Positions 2,835-60,044 of a stretch of DNA of 64,000 nt are shown one piece after another. The DNA is taken from the NCBI RefSeq assembly GCF_900113255.1, contig NZ_FOOR01000005.1, positions 186,001 to 250,000 on the forward strand. The letters are read 5' to 3'. Each line of letters begins with the position of its first letter. Position 1 is the stretch's first letter. Position numbers and translations under genes: made by a program. Under the pieces are notes generated by a model. The model saw only the letters and a list, made by a program, of their open reading frames with translations, searched no databases and was not told the origin of the DNA. Origin of the DNA: Novosphingobium sp. CF614. Lineage in GTDB: Bacteria; Pseudomonadota; Alphaproteobacteria; Sphingomonadales; Sphingomonadaceae.

Positions 2835-2835
2835 C

Positions 2836-3050: not shown

Positions 3051-3168
3051 GCTCTTGCCCGGTCCAGGGGATGGCCGCGGCACGGTGAACTCCGTCTGAG
3101 CGACGAACGAGCGGCTGGGGCCGCATCGGAGACGTGCGTCGGCCGCCCACGGCGAACGGCCGCCGCGC

Positions 3169-27279: not shown

Positions 27280-27369
<90 letters not shown>

Positions 27370-27417: not shown

Positions 27418-27503
27418 CCTCCTGATTACCAATGTTTAGCTGACCGGTTCGGCCTCGGCCGTCCGTGCCCGTCCATGGCCTTCCGGTGATTCGGAAGTGC
27501 CAG

Positions 27504-27536
27504 AACGAGGTATCGGCGGTCGAAAAACGAGGTATC
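27504..27536 (+). repeat. Paired direct repeat AACGAGGTATC before the integrase
   Basis: AACGAGGTATC occurs at 27504-27514 and 27526-27536, spaced 22 bp start to start (two helical turns), just before the integrase ATG. This spacing and place fit integrase arm-type sites or an autoregulatory operator. No function is shown. Confidence 0.5.
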
Positions 27537-27550
27537 TCAGGAGACCGGAA

Positions 27551-32451: not shown

Positions 32452-32904
32452 TTACTCTCCCCTTATCTCGATTCGCTGCCGGTCCGACCTGAGCCAGTCT
32501 GCGCAGGCGGAGATCACATTCTCAAGGGGAAGGCGGGTTCGTCCTTTGAGTGCACATTCCCAGACGATCGCCAGCCGCCAATCTGCTTCCATTAATGCTG
32601 CCTCCGAGCGAGCATCGACCACACGGTTGCGGCCGATCTTTGCCTGCCAGAACTCCGGGCGCGTCGAGGGCCATTTGAACAGATGGCAGTCGTGCCCGTG
32701 CCAGAAGCAACCGTGGGCGAAGACGACAGCCCGGTAGCGCGGCAACACGATATCCGGCTTGCCAGGTAGCACCCGGTCATGCAGCCGGAACCGGAAGCCG
32801 CTTGCGTGCAGACCCTTGCGAAGCAGCAACTCGGGCTTCGTGTTCGTCCCCCGGATCCCTGCCATCATTCGGCTGCGCACGTCAGCCGATACGATGTCAG
32901 CCAT
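32452..32904 (-). CDS. vsr: Very short patch repair endonuclease Vsr
   Basis: 150 residues. The family start SADVRSRMMAGIRGTNTKPE, the catalytic core GKPDIVLPRYRAVVFAHGCFWHGH, and CHLFKWPSTRPEFWQAKI with zinc-binding residues (CFWHGHDCH) are all present. It nicks T:G mismatches made by deamination of 5-methylcytosine, protecting the host from mutations caused by the linked methylase. The start at 32904 overlaps the methylase 3' end by 8 bp; the longer open frame is methylase antisense frame. Confidence 0.96.
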   Translation of the reverse strand: MADIVSADVRSRMMAGIRGTNTKPELLLRKGLHASGFRFRLHDRVLPGKPDIVLPRYRAVVFAHGCFWHGHDCHLFKWPSTRPEFWQAKIGRNRVVDARSEAALMEADWRLAIVWECALKGRTRLPLENVISACADWLRSDRQRIEIRGE

Positions 32905-34153
32905 GGGCGAGGATCGGTTCCCGGTCGGGACGGGTGACGGTAACAGGTGCCGTGTCAGGACGGCTCGTTGCACTGGAGAGCGCAGATTCGATGTGCGGCT
33001 TCATCGCCTGCGCGAGGAATTCGACTACCGGCACGACGACGGCGTTGCCGAACTGACGGTAGGCCTGTGTATCGGACACCGGGATTTTCCAACGTCGATC
33101 GCCGCGGTCGAAGCCCATCAGACGCGCACATTCCAGCGGCGTCAGCCGCCGGGGCCGTTTGCCGGGCTGGGCAACCAGCACCTCGGACCCGTCCTTGTAG
33201 TAGCGTGCGGACAGGGTACGCGTCACATCGTCGGGTCCGAACAGGCTATAGCCGAAGCCGTTGCCCTTCGAAGTATGTTTGGCCTTGTAAGCCTGCAGAT
33301 ACTCCCACAGCCGCTCGGTCAGGGTGTATTTGGGATCGACCTCGTCATGCGGCTGGAGGATGCTGCCCAGCTTCGGCCCGCCAGTCGGCAGTTTTAGCCC
33401 CTTCAGATCGAATGCGGTCGGTTCGCGGAAGCCGACGATGAAGATCCGCTCGCGCTTCTGGGGCACCCAGTGCTCCGAGCTGATTACCCGCGTCTGGACA
33501 TGATAGCCCAGCTCATTCTCCAGCACGTTCAGAATCGTGGCGAAGGTGCGCCCCTTGTCATGGCTTTCAAGATTCTTGACGTTCTCCAGCACGAACGCTG
33601 CAGGCCGATGGTGGGCGATGATCTGCGCCGTGTCGAAAAACAGCGTCCCCTGCGTGTCGCACAGAAAGCCGTGCGGGCGGCCGAGCGCATTCTTCTTCGA
33701 CACGCCGGCGATCGAGAAGGGCTGGCACGGGAATCCCCCAAGCAGGATATCATGTTCGGGAATCCGGCAAGGATCCTCGGCATAGTCTCGAATGTCGCCG
33801 GCGAGCGGATGGTTATCGCGGAAGTTCAGCGCATAGGTCTTCTGGGCGTTCTCGTCCCACTCCGAGGTGAAGACGCAATGACCGCCGATCCCCTGAAAGC
33901 CGATGCGCAGTCCGCCGATACCGGCGAACAGATCGATGAAGCGGAACGACACCGGACGAGGCCCTTCCGATGCCGAACGTGCGGCATCCTTCAAAACGCG
34001 CAGCGCCAGAGGAGATGGCCGGCCCGTACCATTGGCGTAGCGGGCGACCGTCCGGTCTGATACGGAAAGCAAGGTCGCCGCTTCGGACTGCGTCAGCCCA
34101 GCGCGATCGCAAAGCCGGTTGAATTCATTCTGCTTCGCTGCCCGTCTTTGCAC
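32897..34153 (-). CDS. DNA (cytosine-5-)-methyltransferase, Dcm/M.EcoRII-like
   Basis: 418 residues. An N-terminal helix-turn-helix (LTQSEAATLLSVSDRTVARYA, residues 20-40) is followed by the m5C methylase motifs: I FIDLFAGIGGLRIGF (~72-86), IV GGFPCQPFSIAG with catalytic Cys ~143, VI ENVKNLESHD, VIII QKRERIFIVGF, IX RTLSARYYKDGSE and X FGNAVVVPVV. The GVSKKNALGRPHGF stretch after PCQ is typical of Dcm and M.EcoRII, so CCWGG is the probable site. The HTH may let the enzyme regulate its own promoter. It is the first gene of the methylase-vsr-nuclease operon. Confidence 0.95.
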   Translation of the reverse strand: MQRRAAKQNEFNRLCDRAGLTQSEAATLLSVSDRTVARYANGTGRPSPLALRVLKDAARSASEGPRPVSFRFIDLFAGIGGLRIGFQGIGGHCVFTSEWDENAQKTYALNFRDNHPLAGDIRDYAEDPCRIPEHDILLGGFPCQPFSIAGVSKKNALGRPHGFLCDTQGTLFFDTAQIIAHHRPAAFVLENVKNLESHDKGRTFATILNVLENELGYHVQTRVISSEHWVPQKRERIFIVGFREPTAFDLKGLKLPTGGPKLGSILQPHDEVDPKYTLTERLWEYLQAYKAKHTSKGNGFGYSLFGPDDVTRTLSARYYKDGSEVLVAQPGKRPRRLTPLECARLMGFDRGDRRWKIPVSDTQAYRQFGNAVVVPVVEFLAQAMKPHIESALSSATSRPDTAPVTVTRPDREPILAHG

Positions 34154-34379: not shown

Positions 34380-35300
34380 GTGAAGAGCGGCATCGACCAT
34401 CTGCCCTCGGTCCAGCAAAGTGAACTGGGTCGAGTGACGCAATTGCTGATGGGCGAGTTTGCCGAAGCGACGGCGCGCGCGAACCAGCCGTGGAAGAAGA
34501 ACGGGCGCATCCTCAAGGTCATCCTGTTCGGCAGTTACGCCCGGGACGATTGGGTCGACGAACCCGAGAATGGCTACCAGTCCGACTACGACCTGTTGAT
34601 CATCGTCAGCCATCCCGATCTTACCGACATTGCCGACTATTGGTACGTCGCCGAGGACAAGATACTGCGCGATACCGCGATCGCGCGGCCCGTGAACATC
34701 ATCGTCCATACCCTGCAGGAGGTGAACCAGGCGTTGAGCCGTGGTGAATATTTCTGGGTCGATATCGCCCGTGACGGCATCGAACTCTACGAACTGCCTG
34801 GCGGCGCACTTGCCACGCCTCAGCCACTGACACCTGCCGATGCGTTTGAGATGGCAAGCGCTTACTTCTCAAAGCAGCTTCCAGCGGTCGATCGCTGGTT
34901 AAAGCTTGCAGACGTCTCAATAGCGGAGGGAGCTGCGGATGCCGAATGGGCGCGAAACGCAGCTTTTAACCTCCACCAAGCGACGGAAACCGCCTACGCC
35001 TGCTTCCTGCTGGTCCGCACCCTGTATTTTCCGCGCTCGCACAACATCAAGTTCCTGCGCTCGCTCGCCGAGGACAGCGAACCGCGCCTGATCGAAGCAT
35101 GGCCGCGCGCCACCCGGATTGACCGCCGCCGCTTCGAGCTGCTGAAGCGCGCCTATGTCGAGGCCCGCTATTCGGCGAGCTACGAGATCGGCAACGACGA
35201 CCTCGATGCTCTGGCACAGTCCATTCGCACCCTTCGCGACATGATCGAGGCCGTTTCGCTCGAACGTATCGAAACGCTCCGGACCGACGCCGGCCTCTAA
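34380..35300 (+). CDS. Fused nucleotidyltransferase (MNT)-HEPN protein
   Basis: 306 residues. Residues ~45-125 hold a minimal nucleotidyltransferase: ILKVILFGSYARDDW, then SDYDLLIIV (GS...DxD catalytic pattern). Residues ~155-300 form a helical HEPN domain (EWARNAAFNLHQATETAYACF; EARYSASYEI). In two-gene MNT/HEPN toxin-antitoxin systems, MNT AMPylates the HEPN RNase to silence it; here both are in one chain, as in some aminoglycoside-nucleotidyltransferase-like proteins. The start is a GTG at 34380. It sits between the restriction block and the conjugation operon, where a stabilising module would be expected. Confidence 0.85.
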   Translation: MKSGIDHLPSVQQSELGRVTQLLMGEFAEATARANQPWKKNGRILKVILFGSYARDDWVDEPENGYQSDYDLLIIVSHPDLTDIADYWYVAEDKILRDTAIARPVNIIVHTLQEVNQALSRGEYFWVDIARDGIELYELPGGALATPQPLTPADAFEMASAYFSKQLPAVDRWLKLADVSIAEGAADAEWARNAAFNLHQATETAYACFLLVRTLYFPRSHNIKFLRSLAEDSEPRLIEAWPRATRIDRRRFELLKRAYVEARYSASYEIGNDDLDALAQSIRTLRDMIEAVSLERIETLRTDAGL

Positions 35301-46974: not shown

Positions 46975-47193
46975 ATGCCAGAATTGAAACTGGGCAGATT
47001 GCCGGACAGGACTCCGATCAAGCTGGCGATCACCGTTACGCCCGATCTTCACCATATGCTGCAGCAATATGCCGCGCTTTATGCCGAAGCCTACGGCCGC
47101 GAAGAATCCGTCACCGAACTCGTTCCTGCGATGCTGGCGGCTTTCCTCGAGAGCGATCGCAGTTTCGTTCGCAGCCGCTCTACCGGAAAATGA
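46975..47193 (+). CDS. DUF2274 family small protein
   Basis: 72 residues (LPDRTPIKLAITVTPDLHHML start region) matching the DUF2274 proteins that close trb operons in alphaproteobacterial integrative elements. Possibly RHH-like. An AGGAGG site lies 6 bp before the ATG, just behind trbI. Function unknown. Confidence 0.85.
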   Translation: MPELKLGRLPDRTPIKLAITVTPDLHHMLQQYAALYAEAYGREESVTELVPAMLAAFLESDRSFVRSRSTGK

Positions 47194-47411
47194 GCGCCGA
47201 GACTGAGATCCCGGATCGCTTCGTCAAGCTCGACGAGGTCAAGCGCCGCGTCGGTCTCGGCAAGTCGATGATCTACCGGCTGATCCAGGAAGGGAAGTTC
47301 CCCGCGCCGTACAAGCTGTCGCCGTTCGCGTCGCGGTGGAGCGACCGGGAGATCGTGGCCTGGGTCAACGATGTGAAAGACGGCTTCGAGGGGAAGAAGC
47401 GGAAGGTCTGA
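47190..47411 (+). CDS. AlpA family DNA-binding regulator
   Basis: 73 residues: FVKLDEVKRRVGLGKSMIYRLIQEGKFP is a winged-helix/HTH of the AlpA/MerR-like excisionase type, and RWSDREIVAWVNDV the usual end. Such proteins act as excisionases or activators of integrase genes in integrated elements. It overlaps the DUF2274 gene by 4 bp and is the last gene of the transfer operon. Confidence 0.9.
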   Translation: MSAETEIPDRFVKLDEVKRRVGLGKSMIYRLIQEGKFPAPYKLSPFASRWSDREIVAWVNDVKDGFEGKKRKV

Positions 47412-48245: not shown

Positions 48246-48878
48246 ATGATCTCTGACGATTTCTCGATCGCGTCCAGCGTTGTGCGCGGCAAGCAGATCA
48301 TCGATATCGTGACTGGGTTGCTTACGATCATCGACAATGACGAGGCGGCCAATGCCAAAGCGCTTGCGGCGGGCAAGATCCACGAGATCGGCCGCGAGTT
48401 CGAACAGGCGCGCAAGGCTTATGCTGCCGCCCAGGGCCTGCCCGAAGCCGCGGTCCGCAGCGCCATCGTCGACCTGAAGACCGGCGAAGCCTGTCGGGCA
48501 CTTGGGAGCATCAAGCATTTCATCGAAGCCCATCGGGATTTCCGTTTCGCTGATATCAGCGGCCGTCCGTTGTCGGCTGCAACGATCCTGGGCGATGCCT
48601 ATCGGATGACGGGCAATGGCAAGGCTGCCATAGACGCCTATCGGGAAGCGCTCGAGCTCGTGCCGGGCGACAGCCATTCGGCCGCCCATCTGGCGCGACT
48701 CTATTTGACCGACAATGCGCCCGAGGAGGCGATCACACTGAGTGAACGGTTCCTCGACGCAGAGGAGATGTCTGCGTTGCAGTCGACGACACGCCTGCTC
48801 GCCAACGATCCTAACAAGCTTCCGGCTCTGGGTGGTCTCGTGAGCAGCATGACCCGCAAATTCTCGGATGTGCGCTAG
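48246..48878 (+). CDS. TPR-like protein, first gene of unassigned block
   Basis: 210 residues, mainly helical, no signal peptide. Residues ~115-150 (AATILGDAYRMTGNGKAAIDAYREALELVPGD, described in outline) form a good tetratricopeptide unit, and weaker units may lie at residues 36-62 and 145-170. TPR proteins serve as scaffolds. A strong GAGGAAAG ribosome site precedes the ATG. The next gene starts 12 bp downstream. I cannot assign a specific function. Confidence 0.75.
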   Translation: MISDDFSIASSVVRGKQIIDIVTGLLTIIDNDEAANAKALAAGKIHEIGREFEQARKAYAAAQGLPEAAVRSAIVDLKTGEACRALGSIKHFIEAHRDFRFADISGRPLSAATILGDAYRMTGNGKAAIDAYREALELVPGDSHSAAHLARLYLTDNAPEEAITLSERFLDAEEMSALQSTTRLLANDPNKLPALGGLVSSMTRKFSDVR

Positions 48879-48890
48879 ATCCGGCAGGTG

Positions 48891-50024
48891 ATGGATGTCG
48901 GAGCCTTTCTGAGGTTTCATCGGCTTGAGCCCGACGCCCTCCTGTCCGGGCTCGCGAAACAGGTGGCGGAGCGGGCCGACGACGTCATCCTGCTTGCCGG
49001 CTCCTTGTCGGAAGGGCTCGGCAATCACAGATCGGATATCGACATCTATCGCGTGATCTCGTGCGAACTTTCCACCCAAGACCCCGTGGAGATTCTCGAT
49101 CTGGGGCCCGTCGCAGCGGACGTCGAGACCGTTTCGCAAAGCCGTGTGCGCACATTGCTTGCGCGCCTCGATGCCACCGACAGCGACCAGACTTCCGATC
49201 CGCGTGATGCTGTCGCCGCCTTTTCAGACGGAGACATAAAGCTGCTGCACCAGATGCGCATCGGCACGACGTTGTTGGGAGAAACGGTCTGGAGGCCGTT
49301 GCACAGCGCTATCGACGCTCGGCGCCTCGCTCGCCTGCTGCTTGACCGAGCCGTTGCGTGGTTGGGCGTCTTGCAGATCGATCTGCTGGGCTTTCTGGAG
49401 TCGGGGGATGACGACAGCGCCCGCCCCTTGTTGCGTCAGTTCCGCACACGATTGGGCGCGGCTCTGCTCGCAGCGCTCGGGGAGACCAACCCTGCCGAAA
49501 AATGGCAAATCCGGCTGCTGGAGCGTCAGGCCCAGACTCGACCGGACCTGCGCTTACCCGGGGGCCAGAGTCTGCCGGATCTCATAGCCAAGTGGCGCGC
49601 GATGGATGAGGTCATCGGCAGCGGACGCGCTGGCGATGCGATGCGAGCGCTTCAGAATCTGCGGTTCATCATCGTGCCTTGGGCTCAGCGACGCTTCCAC
49701 GCCGGCCTCGCACTCGGAGAAGATGGCGCGCAGTTGCCCTTGTCACTCATGCCAGCGGACATGACGGGTGATCGGCTACCCCCATTGCGGCTGGACTGTC
49801 AGATCCAGCACGATGCGCAGGGTCTATGGGTCGCGAAGGTCGCGCATGCCGAAATGCTGTACATCAATCCACTCGCGCACGAATTGCTGCTCCACTTCGA
49901 TGGACAGTCCACCCGTGCCGCTGCGGCCGCGCGGCTGGAGGCGATCAGCGACGCGCCCGCGTTCGAAATCGCGCAAAGCATCTCGGATTTTCAAATGGTC
50001 CTTGCGGATCGGGCTTTGATCTAG
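48891..50024 (+). CDS. Nucleotidyltransferase-fold protein with C-terminal PqqD-like domain
   Basis: 377 residues. The N-terminus has a Pol-beta type nucleotidyltransferase signature, LLAGSLSEGLGNHRSDIDIYRV (GS then DxD, residues ~34-55). The middle is helical. The last ~65 residues (MLYINPLAHELLLHFDGQST) resemble PqqD/RRE domains, which bind precursor peptides in RiPP pathways. A GTG three bases upstream is an alternative start. The combination, if correct, is unusual. The similarity of the tail is judged by eye and is not certain. Confidence 0.65.
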   Translation: MDVGAFLRFHRLEPDALLSGLAKQVAERADDVILLAGSLSEGLGNHRSDIDIYRVISCELSTQDPVEILDLGPVAADVETVSQSRVRTLLARLDATDSDQTSDPRDAVAAFSDGDIKLLHQMRIGTTLLGETVWRPLHSAIDARRLARLLLDRAVAWLGVLQIDLLGFLESGDDDSARPLLRQFRTRLGAALLAALGETNPAEKWQIRLLERQAQTRPDLRLPGGQSLPDLIAKWRAMDEVIGSGRAGDAMRALQNLRFIIVPWAQRRFHAGLALGEDGAQLPLSLMPADMTGDRLPPLRLDCQIQHDAQGLWVAKVAHAEMLYINPLAHELLLHFDGQSTRAAAAARLEAISDAPAFEIAQSISDFQMVLADRALI

Positions 50025-50036
50025 GGGCGCAAGATA

Positions 50037-51248
50037 ATGGACATGGTCCCAGGTTTGATCGGCATCGGTGCTCAGCGCATCATATCGTCCGACGCCCACA
50101 TCATCGAGCCGCCCGATCTGTGGACGAGCCGGGTCGATCGACGGCTACGAGACCGAGCTCCGAGGGTGGAGCGGATCGGCGGGAATGACTGGTGGGTCTA
50201 TGACGGCGCTCGCATCGGTTCCGTCAGCGGGCGCCGGCGACGCTCGGGTAGCCTTGTCATGGACGATCGGGATCTCGCGTCACGCGGCGCGGTGCTCACC
50301 CACTCGGTGTTCGAGGATGTCGATCCTGCCGCCTACACGCCCTCGCTCTATCTCGAAGCCAATCGGGCCGACGGGATCGCCGGCGCGGTGATCCGGCCCA
50401 CCCAGGGCATCACCAATTATTGCATCACCGATCCGGAAATGTTCGGCGCGATCTGTCGGGCGTATAATGATTGGATCAGCGATTTCTGCAGCGAGGACCC
50501 GAACAGCCTCAAAGGCATCGCGATGCTCAACTGCTACGATCCCGAAGACGCAGTTCGCGAACTTGTCCGGGCGCGCGCGCTTGGCTTGGTAGGTGGCATG
50601 ATTAGCTGTTACCCGGGCAGCGAACGAAACTACGGCCATCCCTGCTACGACACGCTTTGGGCAGCCGCTGAGGAGTATCGCTTCCCGATTTCTCTGCACG
50701 TCTTGACCAATTTCAACGGCCCCTATGGCGTGCCCTTCGCCGAGGTGAACTACAGCCTGAGGGTTAATGCGGACCATTGGGTGCGCATGTCGCTCGCCGA
50801 CATGATCTTCGCTGGCGTTTTCGAGCGCTATCCGGACCTCATGATCGAAAGCAGCGAACATGAAGGCGGTTGGGTGCCTTATTTTCTTTGGCAAATGGAC
50901 TGGACCTGGGAAAAGCGCATCCGCAAACGGCAGCAGTCGGCGGCCATCGCCCATCCGCCCAGCCATTATTTTCGGCGCAATGTCTATGTATCGATCATTT
51001 ATGACCGGCTCGCGATCGAAGCCCGCGAGACGATCGGGGTCGACCGGTTGATGTGGGGTTCGGATTTCCCGCATGAGCAGTCAACTCAGCCCCATAGCCG
51101 GGCCTTTCTGAGTGATCTGATGCAGGAGGTTCCGTCACCCGATGTCGCGGCGATCCTGTTCGACAATGCCGCGCGGCTGTTCGGATTCGACCCCCGGCTG
51201 GGACTCGAAAAAGATATGATGACCGCCGAACGGCTGACCACGCGATGA
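50037..51248 (+). CDS. Amidohydrolase-family (amidohydrolase 2) metal-dependent hydrolase
   Basis: 403 residues. The TIM-barrel amidohydrolase-2 pattern is clear: ISSDAHIIEPPDLW (HxxE/D near residue 20), SLHVLTNFNGPYG (barrel His), ESSEHEGGWVPYFL and the end motif RLMWGSDFPHEQST with the catalytic Asp. Members hydrolyse or decarboxylate aromatic acids and related compounds. Substrate unknown. It overlaps the kinase-like gene by 4 bp. Confidence 0.88.
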   Translation: MDMVPGLIGIGAQRIISSDAHIIEPPDLWTSRVDRRLRDRAPRVERIGGNDWWVYDGARIGSVSGRRRRSGSLVMDDRDLASRGAVLTHSVFEDVDPAAYTPSLYLEANRADGIAGAVIRPTQGITNYCITDPEMFGAICRAYNDWISDFCSEDPNSLKGIAMLNCYDPEDAVRELVRARALGLVGGMISCYPGSERNYGHPCYDTLWAAAEEYRFPISLHVLTNFNGPYGVPFAEVNYSLRVNADHWVRMSLADMIFAGVFERYPDLMIESSEHEGGWVPYFLWQMDWTWEKRIRKRQQSAAIAHPPSHYFRRNVYVSIIYDRLAIEARETIGVDRLMWGSDFPHEQSTQPHSRAFLSDLMQEVPSPDVAAILFDNAARLFGFDPRLGLEKDMMTAERLTTR

Positions 51249-51904
51249 TGATCAATATTCTGGGGGGCGATGGCTGCGGCAAGACGACTCAAATCGAGCG
51301 CCTCGAGCAGTGGATTTCGAGTGACTGGAAGCTTCCCGTACGCCGCATGGCCAAGCGTGATATCTTCGACGCCGTGCGCGTTCCCGAATGTGATTTCTTC
51401 GGCGTCCCTTATGAGAGCCTCGCGCACAAATATCTTCCGATGATGCGCGACGAAGCGCGCGCATTGTGGCTGATCTATATGAATGCCGTGCTCATTCGCG
51501 CGACCCCGCCGGCCCCGGGCGAGATCGTGCTGCACGACGGCTATTGGCAGAAACATTATGCCACCGAGGCGGCGATGGGGCTCGATCCACAATGGCTGCT
51601 CGACGTCTGTCGGTTTTTCCCCGAGCCTGACCTTACGATCCTGATGGATATAGATCCCCGCGTAGTCGTCGGGCGCGGGCATAGCCACAAACCCTATGAA
51701 TCGGGTTGCGACAAGACGTGCAGCGACGCGGCGTTCATCACGCATCAGGACCGGGTTCGCGGCTATCTGACCGCGATGGCGAAGGACAGGCACTACCCAA
51801 TGCTCGACGCCAATCGGAGTGCCGACACCATCTTCGACGACCTGAAGGAGCGACTGAGCCCGTGGCTCGACCGGCTGGCATTGACCTCGGCCATCGAGCG
51901 CTGA
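51245..51904 (+). CDS. Thymidylate-kinase-like P-loop kinase
   Basis: 219 residues. The P-loop ILGGDGCGKTTQIERLEQW (residues 4-22) and the overall order, with VLHDGYWQK (DR-like motif) and a late VRGYLTAMAK segment, place it in the dTMP kinase-like family. It lacks the standard DRY of housekeeping Tmk and carries an odd Cys-containing LID region (GHSHKPYESGCDKTC), so it probably phosphorylates something other than dTMP. It is embedded in a coupled operon with hydrolases, which is against a housekeeping role. Confidence 0.8.
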   Translation: MMINILGGDGCGKTTQIERLEQWISSDWKLPVRRMAKRDIFDAVRVPECDFFGVPYESLAHKYLPMMRDEARALWLIYMNAVLIRATPPAPGEIVLHDGYWQKHYATEAAMGLDPQWLLDVCRFFPEPDLTILMDIDPRVVVGRGHSHKPYESGCDKTCSDAAFITHQDRVRGYLTAMAKDRHYPMLDANRSADTIFDDLKERLSPWLDRLALTSAIER

Positions 51905-51913
51905 GGAGCCGCT

Positions 51914-52555
51914 GTGGAGCACATAGATATTTATGACGCCAATATGCGCCGGCTTGGTAGCATGGAGCGGATGGCGGCGCACCGTGCCGGTCATTGGCAC
52001 CAGACAGTCCACTTCTGGCTAGTCGACCGCGAACAGGGCGGGCGGCTGTTCTTCCAGCTGCGCGGTCCAGCGGTGCGGGCCAATCCGGATCGCCTGGACG
52101 CGACCGCGGCGGGTCATATGCTCGCGGGGGAGACGTTAAGCGCGGGGTGGCGCGAAGTCCGGGAAGAACTGGGCATCGACATACCACCGATCGTGCATGA
52201 GCTCGGCTTTCGCACCGAAGTCAGCGATATGCCCGATGGCGACGTCAATCGAGAATTCCAAGCGATCTATCTCGCCGAAGCGCCGTCGGGCCCTGAAGGG
52301 TTCGCACCGGATCCCGCCGAGGTCCATGGTGTCTTGGCTATAGGGATAAGTGACCTGCACAATCTGATCGCGAACCGGATCGAGGCGGTGACGGCCTCCG
52401 GCATCATTTTTGCGCAGGGAGACGCAACGTGGCGACCTGAACGGCGACGCGTCACGATGGATGCTCTGGTCCCTCGGTTCCGTAATTACTACGCGAGCGT
52501 GGCGATCATGGCAGAGCGATTGGTGGAAGGGCGGTGGCCATTAGCGATCGGATGA
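51914..52555 (+). CDS. Nudix hydrolase (isopentenyl-diphosphate-isomerase-like subgroup)
   Basis: 213 residues. The Nudix box AGHMLAGETLSAGWREVREELGI lies near residues 56-78 (shown by its key residues G, E and REVREELG). The preceding HWHQTVHFWLVD segment is typical of the IDI-like Nudix subgroup. It probably hydrolyses a nucleoside-diphosphate-linked compound. GTG start at 51914 behind GAGGAG. Confidence 0.87.
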   Translation: MEHIDIYDANMRRLGSMERMAAHRAGHWHQTVHFWLVDREQGGRLFFQLRGPAVRANPDRLDATAAGHMLAGETLSAGWREVREELGIDIPPIVHELGFRTEVSDMPDGDVNREFQAIYLAEAPSGPEGFAPDPAEVHGVLAIGISDLHNLIANRIEAVTASGIIFAQGDATWRPERRRVTMDALVPRFRNYYASVAIMAERLVEGRWPLAIG

Positions 52556-52587
52556 TTGCTGGGGCACGCGACTGAAGGGGCAGGCTC

Positions 52588-54153
52588 ATGGGAAACTTCA
52601 AGACGATGGCGGCGGCGGCAACGCGGCTGGTCCTTCGAGGTCGGATCGCAACTCTCGACGGCGCGGCAACCGTCCACCCGTCGGCCTCTGTCTGCATCTT
52701 GGATGATGTGATCGAAGCGGTCGCGCCCGCCGGACAGGCCCTGCCGGCCGCCTATGCGCAAGCGACCGTGATCGACACCGGCGGGACGATTTTCCCAGGC
52801 CTGATCGACCTGCACAACCATCTCTCCTACAATTTCCTGCCGCTGTGGTCGGCACCGCGCCGCTTCGCCAATCGCAATATCTGGCGCGAGCATGAGCCCA
52901 GCTACAAATATGAAGTAGCCTGGCCCTATGAGCTGATTGCCAAGAATGTACGCGATCCTGATCTGCCACGCAGCGTCGCGCGCTATGTCGAATGCCGAGC
53001 TCTGTTCGGCGGCGTGACGAGCACCCAGGGCCTGAGCTTTTCGTCAACGGGCGGCGCGGGAAACTTCACGGGGCTGGTCCGCAATGTCGAAGCGCCGGGC
53101 GACCCGGCCTTCCCAGCCGCTGATGGGCGGACGATGGATTTCGCGGCCCCCGAGATCGCGAAGACGCTCGTGCCCGCGCTGCAGCAGCCCCGTCCCTTCA
53201 TCTATCATTTGAGCGAGGGAACTGATGGCGACGCGCGTCAGCGCTTTCTCGATCTCGAATATCAGCCCGGGCAATGGGCGATCAACAAGCGACTGATAGC
53301 GATTCATGGCGTCGCTCTATCGTCCGCCGACCAGGGCAGGATGGCGGCCGCGAGAGGCCTGGTCTGGTCACCGCTCAGCAACTTCCTGCTCTATGGACAG
53401 ACCGCCGAGGTGATCGCAGCTCGCGATCAGGGCGTGTCGATCGCACTCGGCTGCGATTGGGCGCCGAGCGGCAGCAAGAATCCGCTCGGCGAGCTCAAGA
53501 TCGCAAGCTTGGTCAACAACCATCTCGGTCGACCGTTCAACGCCGAACAGCTCGTGCGGATGGTCACCACAACGCCGGCAAAGCTACTCGGCTGGGAACA
53601 GCAGGTGGGTTCGATCGAAGCTGGCAAGAAGGCCGATCTCCTCGTTCTGACTGGAGCTGGCGGCGACGCCTACGATCAGCTGATCGGCGCCAGCGAGCGC
53701 GACATCCTCGCGGTGCTTATCGGCGGTCGTCCACGGCTGGGCCGGGTCAGCCTGTTGCGCGTCGATCCTGCGCGTCAGGAGATCGTGCGGATCGGCGGCG
53801 AAGATTATGCCCTGGATCTCACCGAAGCGGGCGGAGGGCCGCTCGCCGGACTCTCGTTCGACACCGCCCAGGCCAAGCTGCGCGATGCGCTGGCGCATCT
53901 GCCCGAGCTTGCCCGGCAGACGGTCGCGAACCACGCCTTGATTGCAGAAGGCGCTTTGGCGAAGCCACTGGCGATCATCGGCGAATATGATGATGCGAAG
54001 GATCGCTTCGGCCTGCTTGCTGCCGAACAGATCGATCCGACGAAATTGCGGCCGATGGCACTCGAACGCGCAACCGAAATCGACGATACGGACTACCGAG
54101 CCCGCCTGCGTCGAAACATAAACCTGCCTGACTTCCTGCGCGCGGCGCTATGA
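52588..54153 (+). CDS. Amidohydrolase (cytosine-deaminase/AtzB-like)
   Basis: 521 residues. It shows the metal-binding HxH in GLIDLHNHLSYN (near residue 70), a second barrel His in LIAIHGVALSSADQ, and LGCDWAPSGSKNPLGELK carrying the catalytic Asp. The composite beta-sandwich is seen at both ends (RGRIATLDG; GSIEAGKKADLLVL). Members deaminate or dechlorinate heterocycles, for example triazines and nucleobase derivatives. A GGGGCAGG site precedes the ATG. Last gene of the block; the next gene converges. Confidence 0.88.
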   Translation: MGNFKTMAAAATRLVLRGRIATLDGAATVHPSASVCILDDVIEAVAPAGQALPAAYAQATVIDTGGTIFPGLIDLHNHLSYNFLPLWSAPRRFANRNIWREHEPSYKYEVAWPYELIAKNVRDPDLPRSVARYVECRALFGGVTSTQGLSFSSTGGAGNFTGLVRNVEAPGDPAFPAADGRTMDFAAPEIAKTLVPALQQPRPFIYHLSEGTDGDARQRFLDLEYQPGQWAINKRLIAIHGVALSSADQGRMAAARGLVWSPLSNFLLYGQTAEVIAARDQGVSIALGCDWAPSGSKNPLGELKIASLVNNHLGRPFNAEQLVRMVTTTPAKLLGWEQQVGSIEAGKKADLLVLTGAGGDAYDQLIGASERDILAVLIGGRPRLGRVSLLRVDPARQEIVRIGGEDYALDLTEAGGGPLAGLSFDTAQAKLRDALAHLPELARQTVANHALIAEGALAKPLAIIGEYDDAKDRFGLLAAEQIDPTKLRPMALERATEIDDTDYRARLRRNINLPDFLRAAL

Positions 54154-54225: not shown

Positions 54226-55809
54226 TCAACTTGTGCCATTGTCCGAAAGCCAAGTGGGCCAATGTTCCACTTTCATCAGTTCGACCGCTAGCAGGGTCAT
54301 ATCGCGCCACTCGTCCGGTAAAAGCATTTCCCGGGCTCCTGCCGCGTCCTTGAACAACAACGCGTCCAAATCGAGCGATCGGCCTGGCGCACCGACAACC
54401 TTCCCATCAAACAGGCGCCCAAACGCCGCGCCGATCTTGGACCCGGCAGCGAGCGTTTTGGAGTAGCGGTCGAGTCCCTTGGCACCCTTGCGCGGGGCGG
54501 GGATGGGATCAAGAAGCTGCACAATGTCAGTGGAGTTCAACGGGAGCTGGAGGGTAAGGATGTCGAATGCGGAGCCGAAGCCCTTTGCCTGAAAGGCGTC
54601 GTTCAGTACCGATATTGCCGGCAGTCTATCTGCGATCTCCGGAATTGTTTCCGCAACCTTGACCAATGCGTCGAGCTCATTGGTATGGAAGACGCTATCT
54701 AGCATCTTGAGCATTCGAAAGTCTTTCCCGTCGACCATCGTCGCACTCAGTTCACGCGCATCAATGCGCAGGCGATATTCGAACAGAAGCAGAAAAAGAA
54801 TTGCGAGCCTGACCGATCGGGCTCCGTCCACCTTGGATAGACCCTGCGCCGGGCGCCAAACTGATGCCCCTATCCACGGGAATGTGACATCATGAGGTGG
54901 CGCCTTTCCATGGCGGATTGCCGTATATGACTCGTGTGACAGCTGGCTGCAGCGCAAGTTCCAGAACAGGCTCGCGAGTTGGCGCGCCCTTTGGAATATG
55001 GGATCACTGCGCTGCTCGCTGTCAACAAGATCTCGTACAGCACGAACGGGCACCTGGGGCCTACCGGCGATCCTCCTCTTCTGGTCGAAGAACAGTGCGC
55101 CGAGCTTGAAATAGCGTAGTCCATCGACGGTGTTCAGCTTTATTTGGGTGTTTGCATCGATCCATTCGCCGGCCTGTGCCAGGATTGAGTTAAGCGTTTC
55201 TCTCTCACCTGCGGGTATGGCAACCGTGCCATCAACCATGCCACGCGCGAGCGCCTCCCTGAAGCTTGGAGCAACATGCTTGGCGAGAAGACTGGACAGA
55301 CTGTGCTTTGACTTACTGGTTACATTCGGGTCGGTGATGAACAGATAGTCCGCTTGGACACTTGAACAGAGCGCCCAGAATTCGGCGGCCTCGCCAGTAT
55401 AGGCTGACCATGGGATGATAGCCTGGACATGGCTTGGCCATTTGTTTGCTGCGAGAACGCCCGCTGTTAAGCCGGCCGCCTTATGATGCATGCCATTCAC
55501 GGCATGTCTCGGATCGCTGCAGCGTTCCTTGTTGCCACACAGCTTGTAGTCCAGAATAGAGACATCGAACGGACCACCTCGTCCGGACTCTTCACAAGTG
55601 GACTGCCGGTTCAGCGTCAGCGCTCGCATGTCGTCGAGATCGGAGATGACCGTGATTGCCATCCACGATGAGTAGGATTTACTCTCCTCGAGCATCGGCT
55701 CCAGTTCATTCGGCGGCAGCGTGATGGCGCCGTCGTCGAGATCATCGAACAGGAGGACGTCCAGCCGTCCGTCATTCGCGAACGGAGGTGTGAGGAGTTG
55801 GATGCTCAT
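54226..55809 (-). CDS. Large receiver-like protein of unknown function (pair partner 2)
   Basis: 527 residues. The N-terminal ~120 residues resemble a response-regulator receiver: DVLLFDDLDDG (acidic pocket), then FDVSILDYKLCGN where the Asp of ILDYKL would be the phosphorylation site. The remaining 400 residues are mostly helical, with no DNA-binding domain or known effector motif that I recognise. The gene starts inside the 3' end of the kinase-like gene (ATGA), so the two products should be made together. GC and codon use are somewhat lower than in the trb operon, which fits horizontal origin. Confidence 0.65.
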   Translation of the reverse strand: MSIQLLTPPFANDGRLDVLLFDDLDDGAITLPPNELEPMLEESKSYSSWMAITVISDLDDMRALTLNRQSTCEESGRGGPFDVSILDYKLCGNKERCSDPRHAVNGMHHKAAGLTAGVLAANKWPSHVQAIIPWSAYTGEAAEFWALCSSVQADYLFITDPNVTSKSKHSLSSLLAKHVAPSFREALARGMVDGTVAIPAGERETLNSILAQAGEWIDANTQIKLNTVDGLRYFKLGALFFDQKRRIAGRPQVPVRAVRDLVDSEQRSDPIFQRARQLASLFWNLRCSQLSHESYTAIRHGKAPPHDVTFPWIGASVWRPAQGLSKVDGARSVRLAILFLLLFEYRLRIDARELSATMVDGKDFRMLKMLDSVFHTNELDALVKVAETIPEIADRLPAISVLNDAFQAKGFGSAFDILTLQLPLNSTDIVQLLDPIPAPRKGAKGLDRYSKTLAAGSKIGAAFGRLFDGKVVGAPGRSLDLDALLFKDAAGAREMLLPDEWRDMTLLAVELMKVEHWPTWLSDNGTS

Positions 55810-57470
55810 CGGCCGGGTCCTTTCATGAGGGGACGCGATTGCATGATCTTTCGGCTCTCATCAGGGTTCGCGGCCTCGGATCGGGTAAAGATCTCTCCCA
55901 AAACGAGGGACGCAATATACTCGCCCTGCTCAGTGCGAACATCCAGATCCAGCCCCGGAATGTGCTCCAGCAACATAGAGGTTCGCAACAGAAAGCCTGT
56001 CTTTGCCGGCGCTGATTGCGCTTCAGACATAGCGTTGGCAATCTGTATGACCACGGCGTCGCCCTTTTCAAACACGGACAATGCAATCTTCGGTTCAGAT
56101 ACGGCCGAAGCGCTGTGCTCGAGCGCGTTCCTGAACAGCTCCATTATAATGGCTGTCAAAAGGTCAGAGCTGACGTAGCCTGACGGCAATATCCAACCCG
56201 GCTCGGCACGATCGGCCTCACCCGCGACTAGCTTGCCTGACCTCCGGACAGACGCAAGAGCAAGCTCCCACGACCGGGCGATGAGGCCCCGCAGATCGGT
56301 ATCGTCACTCTCCAAGAACTTTTCGCGCAAGACGCCTTGATCCGCGTGGATCTCCGCGAAACGGGTGAGACTGGAAGCGAGGGCTTCAGCAGTGAGCATC
56401 GACTGGAGGTAGCCGACCAGGCGCTGCTTCTGTGTCATCACGATGTCAGGGTCGCCATTGAACTCGACGATGAGATCGTCGACCGAAAGGACCTGCTGGT
56501 CAGCCTCGCCGTGGAAGAGGAAGCGGATCACATGAGAAGTACCGATCGCCGCGATCGCGCTGACCGTCCCATGAAGCATCGCTGCTGCGAATTCCCGCTG
56601 CCGTGTGACAGCTTCGAACGCCGTCTGTGATTCAGCGGCGGACGCTTCCGAAAGCACCCAGCGGGCGTTGGCGAGGAACGCACCTAGTCGCGGGTCGAGG
56701 GAATCGACATTATCGCGAAGCAGGAAGAAAACGCAGCCACCGGGAGTGGCACCGGAGTCGTCGAGCGACACTTCATCAGGTAGGCTGAAATTTGGCCGCA
56801 TGAACGGCAGAAGGACGAGCGAAGAACTGCGCAGCTCGGACCAACTCTCAGGTTGACGTATCTCGCCCAGAATTTTTGCTACGTCGCCGAGTTGCGACGC
56901 TACGTCGCGGTCCGGCGCCTGAAGGTCTGGCTCGCTTAGCGGATAGCCACTCGCCTGGAGCATCCCTTCGTATCTAGAGGTGGATTTGCCGTGCGGATCA
57001 CGGCCGATCGACGCATAGAAATAGCCTGTCGTGCTTTCATAGAGCTGCGGGTGGATCACGATCGGAAAACGGAATCGGATTCGGCGCGGCGTGTCGGCGC
57101 CCAGAGCGCGTTCGATGCACTGTTGATAGGTGCGCTGTAACGCTTCAGCATGCGCCGAAAACATTGTCACGTAGCTGCTGAAAAAAGACGGAGCGGTTAG
57201 CGGTTGCCGCCGGCGATCGGAAATGACGGCCATTTCGACCCCAAGCAGCGAGAAGCCATGAGCATCGGCCAGCGATTGAAAAAGGCTCGCCCACCTGTCT
57301 GCTTCCTTGCGAACCTCGAGCTTGAGGTCGTCAGCCGCAAGCACCTGGCCGGCTGGAATCGCAGTGCAAAGCGGCTCCAGCTTGGGAATCTCGCCCATAG
57401 TCTTCAGCCAGCCGAGCCAATTGCCCACTTCGACGCGCTGCGCTGCTTCCGCCTGCCCGGTCTGAGCCAA
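55806..57470 (-). CDS. GHKL-type histidine-kinase-like protein (pair partner 1)
   Basis: 554 residues, soluble. The C-terminal third looks like a histidine kinase: AAAMLHGTVSAIAAIGTSHVI has a His in an H-box-like helix (near residue 300), LTAIIMELFRNALEHSAS is a good N-box (near residue 460), and KTGFLLRTSMLL may be a degenerate G region. The N-terminal ~250 residues are of unknown type. No membrane segment is seen, so the signal would be cytoplasmic. The start is weak: TTG 57470 is the first possible codon after an upstream stop; ATG at about residue 25 is the alternative. Confidence 0.65.
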   Translation of the reverse strand: MAQTGQAEAAQRVEVGNWLGWLKTMGEIPKLEPLCTAIPAGQVLAADDLKLEVRKEADRWASLFQSLADAHGFSLLGVEMAVISDRRRQPLTAPSFFSSYVTMFSAHAEALQRTYQQCIERALGADTPRRIRFRFPIVIHPQLYESTTGYFYASIGRDPHGKSTSRYEGMLQASGYPLSEPDLQAPDRDVASQLGDVAKILGEIRQPESWSELRSSSLVLLPFMRPNFSLPDEVSLDDSGATPGGCVFFLLRDNVDSLDPRLGAFLANARWVLSEASAAESQTAFEAVTRQREFAAAMLHGTVSAIAAIGTSHVIRFLFHGEADQQVLSVDDLIVEFNGDPDIVMTQKQRLVGYLQSMLTAEALASSLTRFAEIHADQGVLREKFLESDDTDLRGLIARSWELALASVRRSGKLVAGEADRAEPGWILPSGYVSSDLLTAIIMELFRNALEHSASAVSEPKIALSVFEKGDAVVIQIANAMSEAQSAPAKTGFLLRTSMLLEHIPGLDLDVRTEQGEYIASLVLGEIFTRSEAANPDESRKIMQSRPLMKGPGR

Positions 57471-57506: not shown

Positions 57507-58274
57507 TCAGCGATGATGATCAGTGTCAACGATGTGCGCAAGGACTCGCGTTCGGGCTTGCATGAACTCTTCCGCGAGACGGTCTCTGGGATGAGGAAGC
57601 GCGATCAAGACCTGCTCGCGAACCTGGGCCGGAACGCCGCCAAGGATGATGACGCGATCCGCAAGATATACGGCCTCATCGATGTCGTGCGTAACCAGCA
57701 ACACGCTGAATCCTAGTCGTTCTCGCAGCGCAACCAGTTCATCCTGCAGCGCAAGGCGGTTCTGGAGATCCAACGCTCCGAAAGGCTCATCGAGCATCAG
57801 AAGGTCGGGAGAACCGACGAGCGCCCGGGCCAGAGCGGCTCTTTTTTCCATGCCACCGGACAGCTCGCGCGGCCACGCGTGCTGGGCCGCGGCCAACCCC
57901 ACGAGGTTCAGAACCTCATCGACACGGGCCGGTCCCTCTTTGCGCATCGACTTCGGGAGTCCGAATTCGACATTCTGGCGCACGGTACGCCAAGCCAGCA
58001 AGCGAGCGTCCTGAAAGACAAGACCACGACGAGCGGAGGGACCGCAGACCACCTCATCGCGGCTCAGAATCTGACCTTCGAAGTCCTCGTCAAGTCCAGC
58101 GATCATCCGCAAAAGAGTCGTTTTGCCTGATCCGCTCGGTCCAAGTATCGCGACAATTTCTCGTTCTGCGACCTCCAGGTCAATATTACCGAGGATTTGG
58201 CGACCATTACCCCGTCCGAAGGTCTTGTTCCGCAGATGGACCGCGAGGAGGGGACTTCCGAGCCTTGCGCACAT
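57507..58274 (-). CDS. ABC transporter ATP-binding protein, SsuB/TauB type
   Basis: 255 residues with Walker [20 protein letters not shown]-loop VFQDARLLAWRTVRQNVEFG, signature LSGGMEKRAALARALVGSP, Walker B LLMLDEPFGALD and H-loop LLVTHDIDEAVYLAD. These are typical of the nitrate/sulfonate/taurine importer family. The ATG at 58274 lies directly behind the permease stop; an upstream in-frame start at 58325 would overlap the permease. Confidence 0.93.
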   Translation of the reverse strand: MCARLGSPLLAVHLRNKTFGRGNGRQILGNIDLEVAEREIVAILGPSGSGKTTLLRMIAGLDEDFEGQILSRDEVVCGPSARRGLVFQDARLLAWRTVRQNVEFGLPKSMRKEGPARVDEVLNLVGLAAAQHAWPRELSGGMEKRAALARALVGSPDLLMLDEPFGALDLQNRLALQDELVALRERLGFSVLLVTHDIDEAVYLADRVIILGGVPAQVREQVLIALPHPRDRLAEEFMQARTRVLAHIVDTDHHR

Positions 58275-58275
58275 C

Positions 58276-59097
58276 TTAATTTCCGTCGTAGCTACTCTGC
58301 CAGCGCAAGACGTGGCGCTGCGCATATAGCATCAGCCGGTCGCTCACGGCTCCAAGAAAGCCGATGCAGACCATTCCGGCAATCATGTCGTCGGGTCGCG
58401 AAAAATTTCGAGCGTCGTAAATGAACCATCCGAGCCCCCGATTTGCGGCGATCAGCTCTGCCGCGATAAGGAGAATCCATGACAGGCCAAGCCCGAGGCG
58501 CAGCCCCGTCATGATGGCGGGCATGGCTGCTGGCAGAAGAACGAACCACAGGGTCTCCGAACGGCTCTTTTCGCAGACCCTCGCGACCTCGACGAACCGC
58601 AAATCCACATGCCTGATTCCCGAGACGGTGTTGGTCGTCACAACGAAGAGAACGCCCAAGGCGATCAACCAGATTTTGGATGCTTCCTGGATCCCGAAGA
58701 GAATGATCAGCAGGGGTATCCAGGCCGTCGGGGGAATGGGTGCCAGCACGCTGATCGTCGGCTCTATCGACCGCTGGGCACCGCGGCTGACACCGATCCA
58801 CGACCCTAGCGCGAGACCGCCTGCAGCACCGATGCCGAAGCCGGCAATCAGGCGGCGAAGGCTGGCGAAGATATGTTCGGTGAGCGTTCCGTCGACCGCC
58901 AGGCGCACAAGGTCGGTTGCTACCGCCAAGGGAGTGGCAATCAGGGTCGAAGGTACCCACTCGAGAACAACCGCGGCGTGCCACAGCGCAAGCAGCGCCA
59001 TCGGCAATATCAAGGGGACGAGTGCCTCGAAAGATCGGTCGCGCGAGCGATACACGCGACCAGCGCGACGTTCAATGCGGGCGACCGTGAGGCTCAT
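58276..59097 (-). CDS. ABC transporter permease, SsuC/TauC type
   Basis: 273 residues with about six membrane segments. The EAA-like loop EVARVCEKSRSETLWFVLLPAAMP (outlined) is typical of SsuC permeases, and AAELIAANRGLGWFIYDARNF closes it. The substrate-binding gene ends 4 bp inside this gene. Substrate not readable; sulfonate, taurine, nitrate and thiamine-precursor importers look alike here. Confidence 0.93.
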   Translation of the reverse strand: MSLTVARIERRAGRVYRSRDRSFEALVPLILPMALLALWHAAVVLEWVPSTLIATPLAVATDLVRLAVDGTLTEHIFASLRRLIAGFGIGAAGGLALGSWIGVSRGAQRSIEPTISVLAPIPPTAWIPLLIILFGIQEASKIWLIALGVLFVVTTNTVSGIRHVDLRFVEVARVCEKSRSETLWFVLLPAAMPAIMTGLRLGLGLSWILLIAAELIAANRGLGWFIYDARNFSRPDDMIAGMVCIGFLGAVSDRLMLYAQRHVLRWQSSYDGN

Positions 59098-60044
59098 GGT
59101 CGGATCAGATCTTTCGCGACGTCGACTCGGGTGCGGACAAGCCCCTTTTCAAAAAGAAAATCGGCTTTGCGTTGGATATCCGCGCGCACGTCGGGCGTCA
59201 GGCTGACGTCGAAGCGATGCTTCGGCCACGCCATCTGCACGACCTTGGGATCGAGATTCGCCTGCTTTGCGACAATAGCAATGGCCTCTGCAGGATGGTC
59301 GTGGACCCAACGCTTGGCTCTTTCCAATACGTCGGAAATCGCCTTCGCCATCTCGGGATGTTGATCCTTGAAGCTGCCTCGCATGGCCATGATGGACTGG
59401 ATCATCGCTTGTCCGCCTTGCAGCGTCCGTCCGCGACCGGCGACGATCTCCTGCTCGACCCATGGTGGCCATACGGCCCAGGCATCAACCCGACCACTTT
59501 CGAACGCCGCTTTGCCCTCGGGAGGCGGCATGTCGACCATCGTGAATTGCTTGTCGGTAACTCCGACGGCTGCGGCATCGACCAGCACGCCATATTGCGA
59601 GCTCGTGCCTGCCAATACAGCGATGGTCTTTCCCTTCAGGCCGCCGATGCTCTGAATAGGCGAATTGGCAGGAACAAGGATGTCGACCGGCAGAGTACAG
59701 CCCAGATTTGTGACCCTGACATCAATGCCTGCGGCCTTGCCGATGATGACCGGCGGTTCGGCTTCGAAAATCACGTCGAGCCGTTTGGTCGCAAGCGCTT
59801 CGTTGATCGCGGGCAGCGTCTCGAATTGCGTGAAGGAGGCCTTGGCATGATGCGGCGCAAGCGCTTCGTCGAACCAGCCTTTCTCCTTGGCGACCAGATA
59901 AGGCGTGTAATCGATCGCGATCGAGAATGTGCCCAGGTTGACGGTCGTGGTCTGCGGCGTTGCCGTTTCGTAACCAACGACCCCCGCTATGAGAAGAAGC
60001 AGGGCCGCGACCGCTCCTCCCAAAACTCCTCGTCTGCGAATCAT
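59094..60044 (-). CDS. ABC transporter substrate-binding protein, SsuA/NMT1 type
   Basis: 316 residues. A signal sequence or membrane anchor (VLGGAVAALLLLIAGVVGY) is followed by a periplasmic-binding fold of the SsuA/TauA type: FSIAIDYTPYLVAKEKGWFDEAL, IFEAEPPVIIGKAAGIDV, SIGGLKGKTIAVLAGTSSQYG and WAVWPPWVEQEI. It carries a sulfonate-like compound to the permease. GGAGAG of the ribosome site lies 6-10 bp upstream of the ATG. First gene of the transporter operon. Confidence 0.93.
   Translation of the reverse strand: MIRRRGVLGGAVAALLLLIAGVVGYETATPQTTTVNLGTFSIAIDYTPYLVAKEKGWFDEALAPHHAKASFTQFETLPAINEALATKRLDVIFEAEPPVIIGKAAGIDVRVTNLGCTLPVDILVPANSPIQSIGGLKGKTIAVLAGTSSQYGVLVDAAAVGVTDKQFTMVDMPPPEGKAAFESGRVDAWAVWPPWVEQEIVAGRGRTLQGGQAMIQSIMAMRGSFKDQHPEMAKAISDVLERAKRWVHDHPAEAIAIVAKQANLDPKVVQMAWPKHRFDVSLTPDVRADIQRKADFLFEKGLVRTRVDVAKDLIRP

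What the first reader, a model, noticed from the sequence alone, without database searches (positions are those of the whole stretch)
48246..54153. Six-gene block of unassigned function in the mobile region
Seen: TPR-like protein, nucleotidyltransferase with PqqD-like tail, amidohydrolase-2, dTMP-kinase-like protein, IDI-like Nudix hydrolase and AtzB-like amidohydrolase, all in one direction, with short gaps or 4-bp overlaps, behind a good ribosome site. Known: each family acts on nucleotides, diphosphate-linked compounds or heterocycles. Inference: they form one pathway, either synthesis or modification of a nucleotide-like or peptide-derived small molecule, or a nucleotide-based defence. I know of no described system with this set.
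Basis: partly seen in the sequence, partly recalled or inferred. Interest (0 to 1): 0.78.

Follow-up and report, generated by a model that had tools for sequence, protein, structure and literature searches.

The report
Mobile nucleotide-tagging biosynthesis operon
Six neighbouring genes on a mobile DNA element, found together again in one other bacterium, likely build an unknown small molecule by a predicted route in which a nucleotide tag would be attached, the tagged compound oxidised and the tag removed.

Summary
The six genes are real and lie at the stated coordinates, inside a 38.5-kb integrative conjugative element in a tRNA-Ser gene. Sphingomonas sp. ERG5 carries all six at 56-73% identity; g1-g5 keep their order, g6 is inverted beside them. 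So this is a unit, but a rare one.

Two annotations change. The "amidohydrolase-2" (g3) is closest by sequence and predicted fold to the diiron monooxygenase PtmU3 and keeps six metal-ligand positions; a second-shell acid is replaced by Gln. The nucleotidyltransferase (g2) models as an antibiotic-type adenylyltransferase joined to a PqqD/RRE-like domain.

g3- and g4-type proteins appear on contigs of equal length in three Neisseriales and in metagenomes. g6 also occurs alone.

Best reading: a biosynthetic operon in which a phosphorylated substrate is nucleotidylated, oxidised and released by the Nudix enzyme. Unity is well supported; the chemistry is inferred. No substrate, product or precursor peptide was identified.

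The parts
48246..48878 (+). g1: TPR protein, 210 aa, C-terminus ending LPALGGLVSSMTRKFSDVR; possible scaffold or partner for g2 (inferred)
   Evidence: TPR_12 34.6 bits; 58% identical to the ERG5 protein, 24 of the last 30 alignment columns identical against 95 of the other 184; no plasmid relative
48888..50024 (+). g2: antibiotic-type nucleotidyltransferase with C-terminal PqqD/RRE-like domain, 378 aa
50037..51248 (+). g3: amidohydrolase-related dinuclear oxygenase-like protein, 403 aa (annotated as amidohydrolase-2)
51245..51904 (+). g4: dTMP-kinase-like P-loop kinase of a separate family (GGDGCGKT, DGYWQKH), 219 aa
   Evidence: overlaps g3 by 4 bp
51914..52555 (+). g5: Nudix protein, nearest to IDI/YfcD, with REVREELG box (spacer of 6 residues), 213 aa
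   Evidence: 60% identical in ERG5
52588..54153 (+). g6: metal-dependent amidohydrolase/deaminase-like protein with HxH, H, H, D set, 521 aa
   Evidence: adjacent but inverted in ERG5; stand-alone relatives
27346..27369 (+). attL: 3' end of tRNA-Ser (CGA); exact copy lies at window-equivalent 65836-65859, outside the window

Best explanation
The block is a horizontally mobile gene set that likely makes an unknown small molecule by a predicted nucleotide-handle route, in which a phosphorylated substrate would be nucleotidylated, oxidised while tagged and then released. Proposed order, every step inferred: g4 phosphorylates a small substrate; g2 transfers a nucleoside monophosphate from an NTP onto it, possibly held by g1 or another partner through its RRE-like tail; g3 uses a dinuclear Fe or Mn/Fe centre and O2 to hydroxylate the tagged compound; g5 (Nudix) cleaves the nucleotide off; g6 cuts an amide or deaminates, as a last tailoring step or as self-protection. 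Shown by sequence: the genes, their conservation as a set in ERG5, catalytic motifs, the oxygenase-like ligand set of g3, the two-domain model of g2, and the recurrence of the NTase/kinase pair in other biosynthesis-like clusters.
Against: No substrate, product, transporter or reductase is encoded in the block; AibH2, SfbO and the other candidate AROs were found near Rieske proteins (PMC10811679, passages). The second-shell acid is Gln in 26 of 26 close g3 relatives; PMC7782822 (passages) says an acid there is kept only in binuclear enzymes. g6 occurs without g1-g5. Pairing of NTase and kinase is not strict: no NTase of this family was seen near the kinase in 3 of the 8 plasmid contexts that I read of 9 (Pantoea, which has an NTP_transf_5 gene instead, S. 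cadmiisoli, Paenibacillus), and G098 has an NTase but no match to the kinase. I recognised no oxygenase in the 14 kb read of G1072. Only one other genome with all six was found. Antibiotic-type NTases usually modify hydroxyl groups, not phosphates (general knowledge).
Confidence: 0.38

Rival explanations
1. Peptide or protein tailoring: g2 uses its RRE-like tail to bind a ribosomal peptide (or g1 itself, at its conserved C-terminus) and nucleotidylates it, with g4 and g3 as further tailoring enzymes, comparable to NTase/kinase tailoring in some lasso peptide clusters.
For: RRE-like tail matching TbiB1 bound to a leader peptide; NTase beside a separate PqqD gene in Corynebacterium; in G098 an NTase beside a gene that I read by eye as PqqD-like (Pfam gives no PqqD match) and near a radical SAM/SPASM gene; a 71-aa peptide 82% identical between R. 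leguminosarum and R. rhizoryzae clusters; NTase and kinase tailoring of pseudomycoidin described in PMC8498205 (passages).
Against: No ORF of 18 aa or more, apart from the six genes and shadows of them, is convincingly shared by window and ERG5 (very divergent peptides could be missed). PqqD match below the Pfam cut-off. No protease, cyclase or exporter in the block.
Confidence: 0.22
2. Catabolic or detoxifying operon: an antibiotic- or xenobiotic-type NTase, hydrolases and a Nudix enzyme that inactivate or consume an outside compound.
For: Fold of g2 nearest to aminoglycoside and lincosamide NTases; two amidohydrolase-superfamily enzymes; ERG5 is an MCPA herbicide degrader (PMC3877037, PMC4333656, start of abstracts in the listing).
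Against: NTase and kinase recur with PEP mutase, AsnB, PPS-like, P450 and KASIII genes, which are biosynthetic; no uptake system in the block; the main text of PMC3877037 holds none of five family words searched.
Confidence: 0.15
3. Nucleotide-based anti-phage defence: g2 makes or attaches a nucleotide signal and the others act as effectors or regulators.
For: MNT and Hailong HalB NTases are among structural neighbours of g2; the element carries an EcoRII-type R-M system and an NTase-HEPN fusion; some g6 relatives lie near AbiH, helicase, DptH and R-M genes on plasmids; g4 has a weak match to PADLOC model PDC-M51B (E 0.0014, 16.4 bits).
Against: No strong PADLOC match for any of the six; an oxygenase-like enzyme and a TMK-like kinase are not defence parts known to me; the NTase/kinase pair recurs in biosynthesis-like clusters.
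Confidence: 0.1
4. The unit is g1-g5 only, and g6 is a separately mobile hydrolase (resistance, nucleobase deamination or defence) that landed beside it.
For: g6 relatives at 40-56% identity stand alone in the five plasmid contexts read (Rhizobium twice, Enterobacter, Cupriavidus, Massilia), and beside a cytidine deaminase in G268 with no g1-g5 in 19.5 kb; g6 is inverted in ERG5.
Against: g6 adjoins g1-g5 in both genomes that have them, on different sides, which suggests a functional tie.
Confidence: 0.35

Closest known systems
Amidohydrolase-related dinuclear oxygenases (PtmU3, AibH2, SfbO; DitZ by my reading)
   Different: Gln at the second-shell acid position, with Glu or Asp one residue earlier, in all 26 close relatives; no Rieske gene in the block
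Phosphonate pathways with nucleotidyl activation (Rhizobium and G098 clusters here; PntC, FrbH, PhpF in PMC6697681, passages)
   Same: Logic of nucleotidylating an acidic intermediate; same NTase family, and in Rhizobium the same kinase family
   Different: The window's genome has one match to the PEP mutase family, isocitrate-lyase-like by my reading; the NTase is pol-beta type, not MobA- or cytidylyltransferase-like
Lasso peptide tailoring by HPr-like kinase and NTase (paeninodin, pseudomycoidin; PMC8498205, passages)
   Same: NTase and kinase in one cluster; RRE-type domain
   Different: No lasso B/C genes seen, no precursor peptide found; kinase of a different family
Aminoglycoside nucleotidyltransferases ANT(4''), kanamycin NTase
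   Different: 11-12% identity; extra RRE-like domain; embedded in an enzyme operon

Membership tests
Amidohydrolase-related dinuclear oxygenase (g3) | Six direct metal ligands (D, H, H, E, D, H) | tested here: met
   26 of 26 closest listed relatives; among the other 94 of the 120 listed, all that have letters there (3 partial rows lack the first two). AibH2 ligand list from PMC7782822 passages; positions carried over through the PtmU3 alignment, not by direct alignment to AibH2
Amidohydrolase-related dinuclear oxygenase (g3) | Acidic second-shell residue two positions after the last His | tested here: not met
   Gln348 in 26 of 26 close relatives; Glu in 89 and Gln in 5 of the other 94
Amidohydrolase-related dinuclear oxygenase (g3) | Fold closer to AROs than to mononuclear decarboxylases | tested here: met
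Amidohydrolase-related dinuclear oxygenase (g3) | O2-dependent hydroxylation with a dinuclear metal centre | not testable with these tools
   needs purified protein
PqqD/RRE domain (g2 tail) | PqqD-like sequence and fold at the C-terminus | tested here: met
PqqD/RRE domain (g2 tail) | Binding of a leader peptide | not testable with these tools
   needs purified protein
RiPP cluster | Encoded precursor peptide conserved with the enzymes | tested here: not met
   only the six genes and their frame shadows are convincingly shared with ERG5; a very divergent peptide, or g1 as a carrier, is not excluded
Pol-beta nucleotidyltransferase (g2) | G[ST]...G...SD(I/L/V)D motif and NTase fold | tested here: met
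   motif found by pattern in 7 of 8 loci (ERG5 reads GSLCEELGNHRSDVD, Glu for the second Gly); fold
dTMP kinase (g4) | Curated dTMP kinase score | tested here: not met
   29.9 against 83.25 bits
Isopentenyl-diphosphate isomerase (g5) | Curated IDI score | tested here: not met
   49.8 against 127 bits; hydrolase-type RExxEE box
Known anti-phage system | Match to PADLOC models | tested here: inconclusive
   two weak matches only among eight proteins of the block and its flank: g4 PDC-M51B E 0.0014, g1 C3a230 E 0.021; new systems would be missed
Phosphonate pathway | PEP mutase in the genome | tested here: not met
   own genome: one match, over the family cut-off (47.6 against 31.5 bits) but only positions 57-154 of 240, in a 565-aa frame; I read it as isocitrate lyase

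The most novel reading that the evidence does not exclude
A new class of biosynthesis in which an RRE-fused nucleotidyltransferase hangs the substrate on a nucleotide (or on the g1 protein), a TMK-like kinase and an interchangeable oxygenase work on the tethered intermediate, and a Nudix enzyme cuts it loose; the NTase-RRE/kinase pair would be a portable module shared by phosphonate, actinobacterial and sphingomonad natural-product clusters.
Probability: 0.2. Interest if true: 0.85.

Novelty: new variant of a known kind. Interest (0 to 1): 0.6.

Why it matters
It would add an oxygenase subfamily now labelled amidohydrolase, and a nucleotidyltransferase/kinase marker pair that points to uncharacterised natural-product clusters from sphingomonads to Streptomyces, some of them tied to phosphonates. 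The block is small (six genes, 5.9 kb), so it can be expressed whole in a laboratory strain.

Tried and rejected
Phosphonate pathway in the window's host: set aside because the one PEP mutase family match looks like isocitrate lyase. ERG5 has four matches over the cut-off on other contigs, not examined further.

A separate precursor peptide: none convincingly conserved with ERG5.

"Every NTase cluster has an oxygenase": I recognised none in G1072 in the 14 kb read. "NTase and kinase always pair": fails for Pantoea, S. cadmiisoli, Paenibacillus (the last probably a true dTMP kinase) and G098.

Plasmid searches: g1 no match; g3 402 records, none at 60% identity or more, contexts not read; g5 7 records, only the Thalassospira context read; g6 11 records, five contexts read. 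No gene was shared among the g6 neighbours that I compared from L020, L021 and L022. The TPR-like gene beside the Thalassospira g5-like gene has no detectable similarity to g1.

Frequency: g2 protein 1 of 98 relatives, own genome only; g2 profile 3 of 397 family genomes, own included, one of them a 58-residue match; kinase profile 1 of 385 and 1 of 398 at E 1e-20 and 2 of 396 at E 1e-15, own included (few candidates per genome were scored, and the draws overlap); g6 2 of 298 at E 1e-60, own included. Viral contigs: no relative. Promoter scan at chance level.

Not looked at: plasmid hits H11, H13-H32, H34-H39, H41-H43, H46, H48, H49; loci L013 and L015-L019; the gene neighbourhoods in the Neisseriales genomes, which I could not reach. 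The tail of the G1072 NTase is not recognisable as RRE-like in an alignment of tails or by Pfam.

The names of the families of kin genomes (G098, G268, G1072) are not told by the tool; "sphingomonad" for the window's own family is inferred from ERG5.

Recalled, not from calls: that a Nudix enzyme releases CMP in FR-900098 synthesis (a search for FrbI found no paper); that a kinase relative from Kitasatospora sp. NRRL F-6133 (listed) belongs to a phosphonate collection (search empty); the usual Nudix spacing and amidohydrolase ligand set; DitZ as an ARO. Read by eye: PqqD-like and HPr-kinase-like genes of G098, aminotransferase and formyltransferase of G1072, several genes of R. rhizoryzae. The R. 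leguminosarum HPr-kinase-like protein matches Hpr_kinase_C below its cut-off.
Full report
WHAT IS THERE. They follow the conjugation genes and an AlpA-type regulator (47190-47411) and are followed by two genes on the other strand. Block GC is 62.0%, against 66.7% for the conjugation region and 58.9% for the rest of the window downstream. The region is an integrative element: the 3' end of tRNA-Ser (27346-27369), followed by an integrase gene (27497-28891), has an exact 24-bp copy 38,490 bases downstream, at window-equivalent 65836-65859, with no tRNA gene found there. The block is therefore cargo.

CONSERVATION AS A SET. A scan of one genome per species with two peptide patterns from g2 found one further locus, in Sphingomonas sp. 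ERG5. There g1-g5 keep order and spacing (gaps 5-18 bases), and g6 lies 308 bases upstream of g1, divergent. Identities from tblastn are 58, 56, 73, 68, 60 and 56% for g1 to g6. No other ORF is convincingly shared beyond frame shadows. Because g6 sits on a different side in the two genomes and is still adjacent, a functional tie is likely, but g6 also lives alone (below).

g3 AND g4. Protein searches with g4 (profile of seven) and g3 gave 120 listed rows each. I took by hand the 28 g4 rows with at least 54% identity (own protein left out) and 31 g3 rows. Fourteen lengths of the longest contig are the same in the two sets, including three named organisms that appear in both: Chromobacterium haemolyticum, Chitinolyticbacter albus and Paludibacterium paludis, all Neisseriales. 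Equal length is an inference of the same contig. Two of these contigs are 2375 and 2550 bases long and leave under 1 kb for anything besides the two genes. One NTase relative (P0005) shares its contig length, 6109, with a g3 relative of 75% identity. The other 14 g4 and 17 g3 rows have no partner in the lists; many are on short contigs.

THE NTase/KINASE PAIR ELSEWHERE. tblastn over 72,556 plasmid records: NTase 3 records, kinase 9, all 3 among the 9 (about 1e-8 by chance after collapsing two near-identical records). I read eight of the nine kinase contexts: the NTase lies within 10 kb in five (two R. leguminosarum, R. rhizoryzae, S. durmitorensis, C. glyciniphilum) and was not found in three (Pantoea, S. 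cadmiisoli, Paenibacillus). The R. leguminosarum cluster is annotated with PEP mutase, phosphonopyruvate decarboxylase, AsnB, a cytidylyltransferase and TauD, and has an HPr-kinase-like gene; R. rhizoryzae has the same kinds of gene by my reading of its ORFs. S. durmitorensis has a PPS-like enzyme, a P450 and two KASIII genes. A genome of the window's family, G098, has an NTase with a PqqD-like gene (by eye), radical SAM/SPASM, luciferase-like monooxygenase, PEP mutase and an HMGL-like enzyme, but no match to this kinase family. Together these place the pair in biosynthesis-like gene clusters; that is the main ground for reading the window block as biosynthetic.

g5 AND g6. g5 is nearest to isopentenyl-diphosphate isomerase and YfcD but far below their cut-offs, and carries REVREELG with a six-residue spacer; its ERG5 and Thalassospira relatives have the same spacing. 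g6 keeps the HxH, H, H, D set in 7 of 7 aligned sequences. Eleven plasmid records hold relatives; the five contexts I read (Rhizobium twice, Enterobacter, Cupriavidus, Massilia; 40-56%) lack the other five genes, and some lie near R-M or Abi genes. In G268, of the window's family, a g6 relative sits beside a cytidine deaminase with no g1-g5 in 19.5 kb.

MECHANISM. Putting these together: g4 would make a phosphate ester, g2 would add a nucleoside monophosphate, g3 would oxidise the tagged compound (PtmU3 likewise accepts CoA-ligated substrates, PMC7782822), g5 would remove the tag, and g6 would finish or protect. g1 would be a scaffold or the partner of the RRE-like tail; 24 of its last 30 alignment columns are identical in ERG5, against 95 of the other 184. 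All of this is inferred. That the genes form a unit I hold at about 0.8; that it is biosynthetic at about 0.6; the particular order of steps at 0.25-0.4.

NOVELTY. Searches of open-licence papers for PqqD with thymidylate kinase and NTase, for thymidylate kinase with PEP mutase, and for RRE with NTase and RiPP terms gave listings without a description of this module as far as titles, abstract starts and the passages I opened show. Most subscription papers are not covered. The parts belong to known families; the combination, the g3 subfamily and the recurring NTase/kinase pair appear undescribed.

Noticed in passing
window 27346-65859 (right end beyond the window): A 38.5-kb integrative conjugative element in tRNA-Ser (CGA): integrase 27497-28891, UvrD-like helicase 29500-31038, EcoRII-type nuclease and C5 methylase 31234-34153, T4SS genes from 35462 to about 46964, AlpA 47190-47411.
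   Followed up: yes
window 34380-35300 and L002 14501-15400: NTase-HEPN fusion proteins, 48% identical, one in the window's element and one shortly after the block in ERG5; possibly shared cargo or a defence gene.
   Followed up: partly
window 54226-57470: Two overlapping genes on the minus strand: a 554-aa protein with a weak GHKL ATPase match (below cut-off) and a 527-aa protein without a family match.
   Followed up: no
L036 8936-11529: g6 relative directly downstream of a cytidine deaminase gene in G268, with caspase and CHASE2/cyclase genes on the other side; ERG5 also has caspase and CHASE2 genes near the block.
   Followed up: partly
L020, L021, L022, L023, L025: Stand-alone g6-like amidohydrolases on plasmids, several near AbiH, helicase, Fic, VapC, DptH or R-M genes; could be an uncharacterised defence or resistance gene.
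   Followed up: partly
L026 5713-12874 and L027 6479-10324 (G098): A cluster with NTase, PqqD-like protein (by eye), radical SAM/SPASM, luciferase-like monooxygenase, PEP mutase and HMGL-like enzyme: looks like a phosphonate pathway mixed with peptide-type genes.
   Followed up: partly
L003 10594-10809 and L004 10755-10970: A 71-aa peptide, 82% identical, just before a gene without family match and the NTase gene in Rhizobium phosphonate clusters; candidate precursor peptide.
   Followed up: partly
L024 8662-13083: Thalassospira marina plasmid: TPR-like gene, g5-like Nudix (38-39% identical), methyltransferase, a protein with aminoacyl-tRNA-synthetase-like motifs (read by eye, no Pfam match) and a histidine phosphatase.
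   Followed up: no
window 2823-3056 and 4478-4717: Two cobalamin riboswitches 1.65 kb apart, 103.7 and 100.8 bits.
   Followed up: no
window 57507-60044: ABC transporter set (ATPase, permease, substrate-binding protein; read by eye) resembling sulfonate/nitrate uptake, minus strand, inside the element.
   Followed up: no
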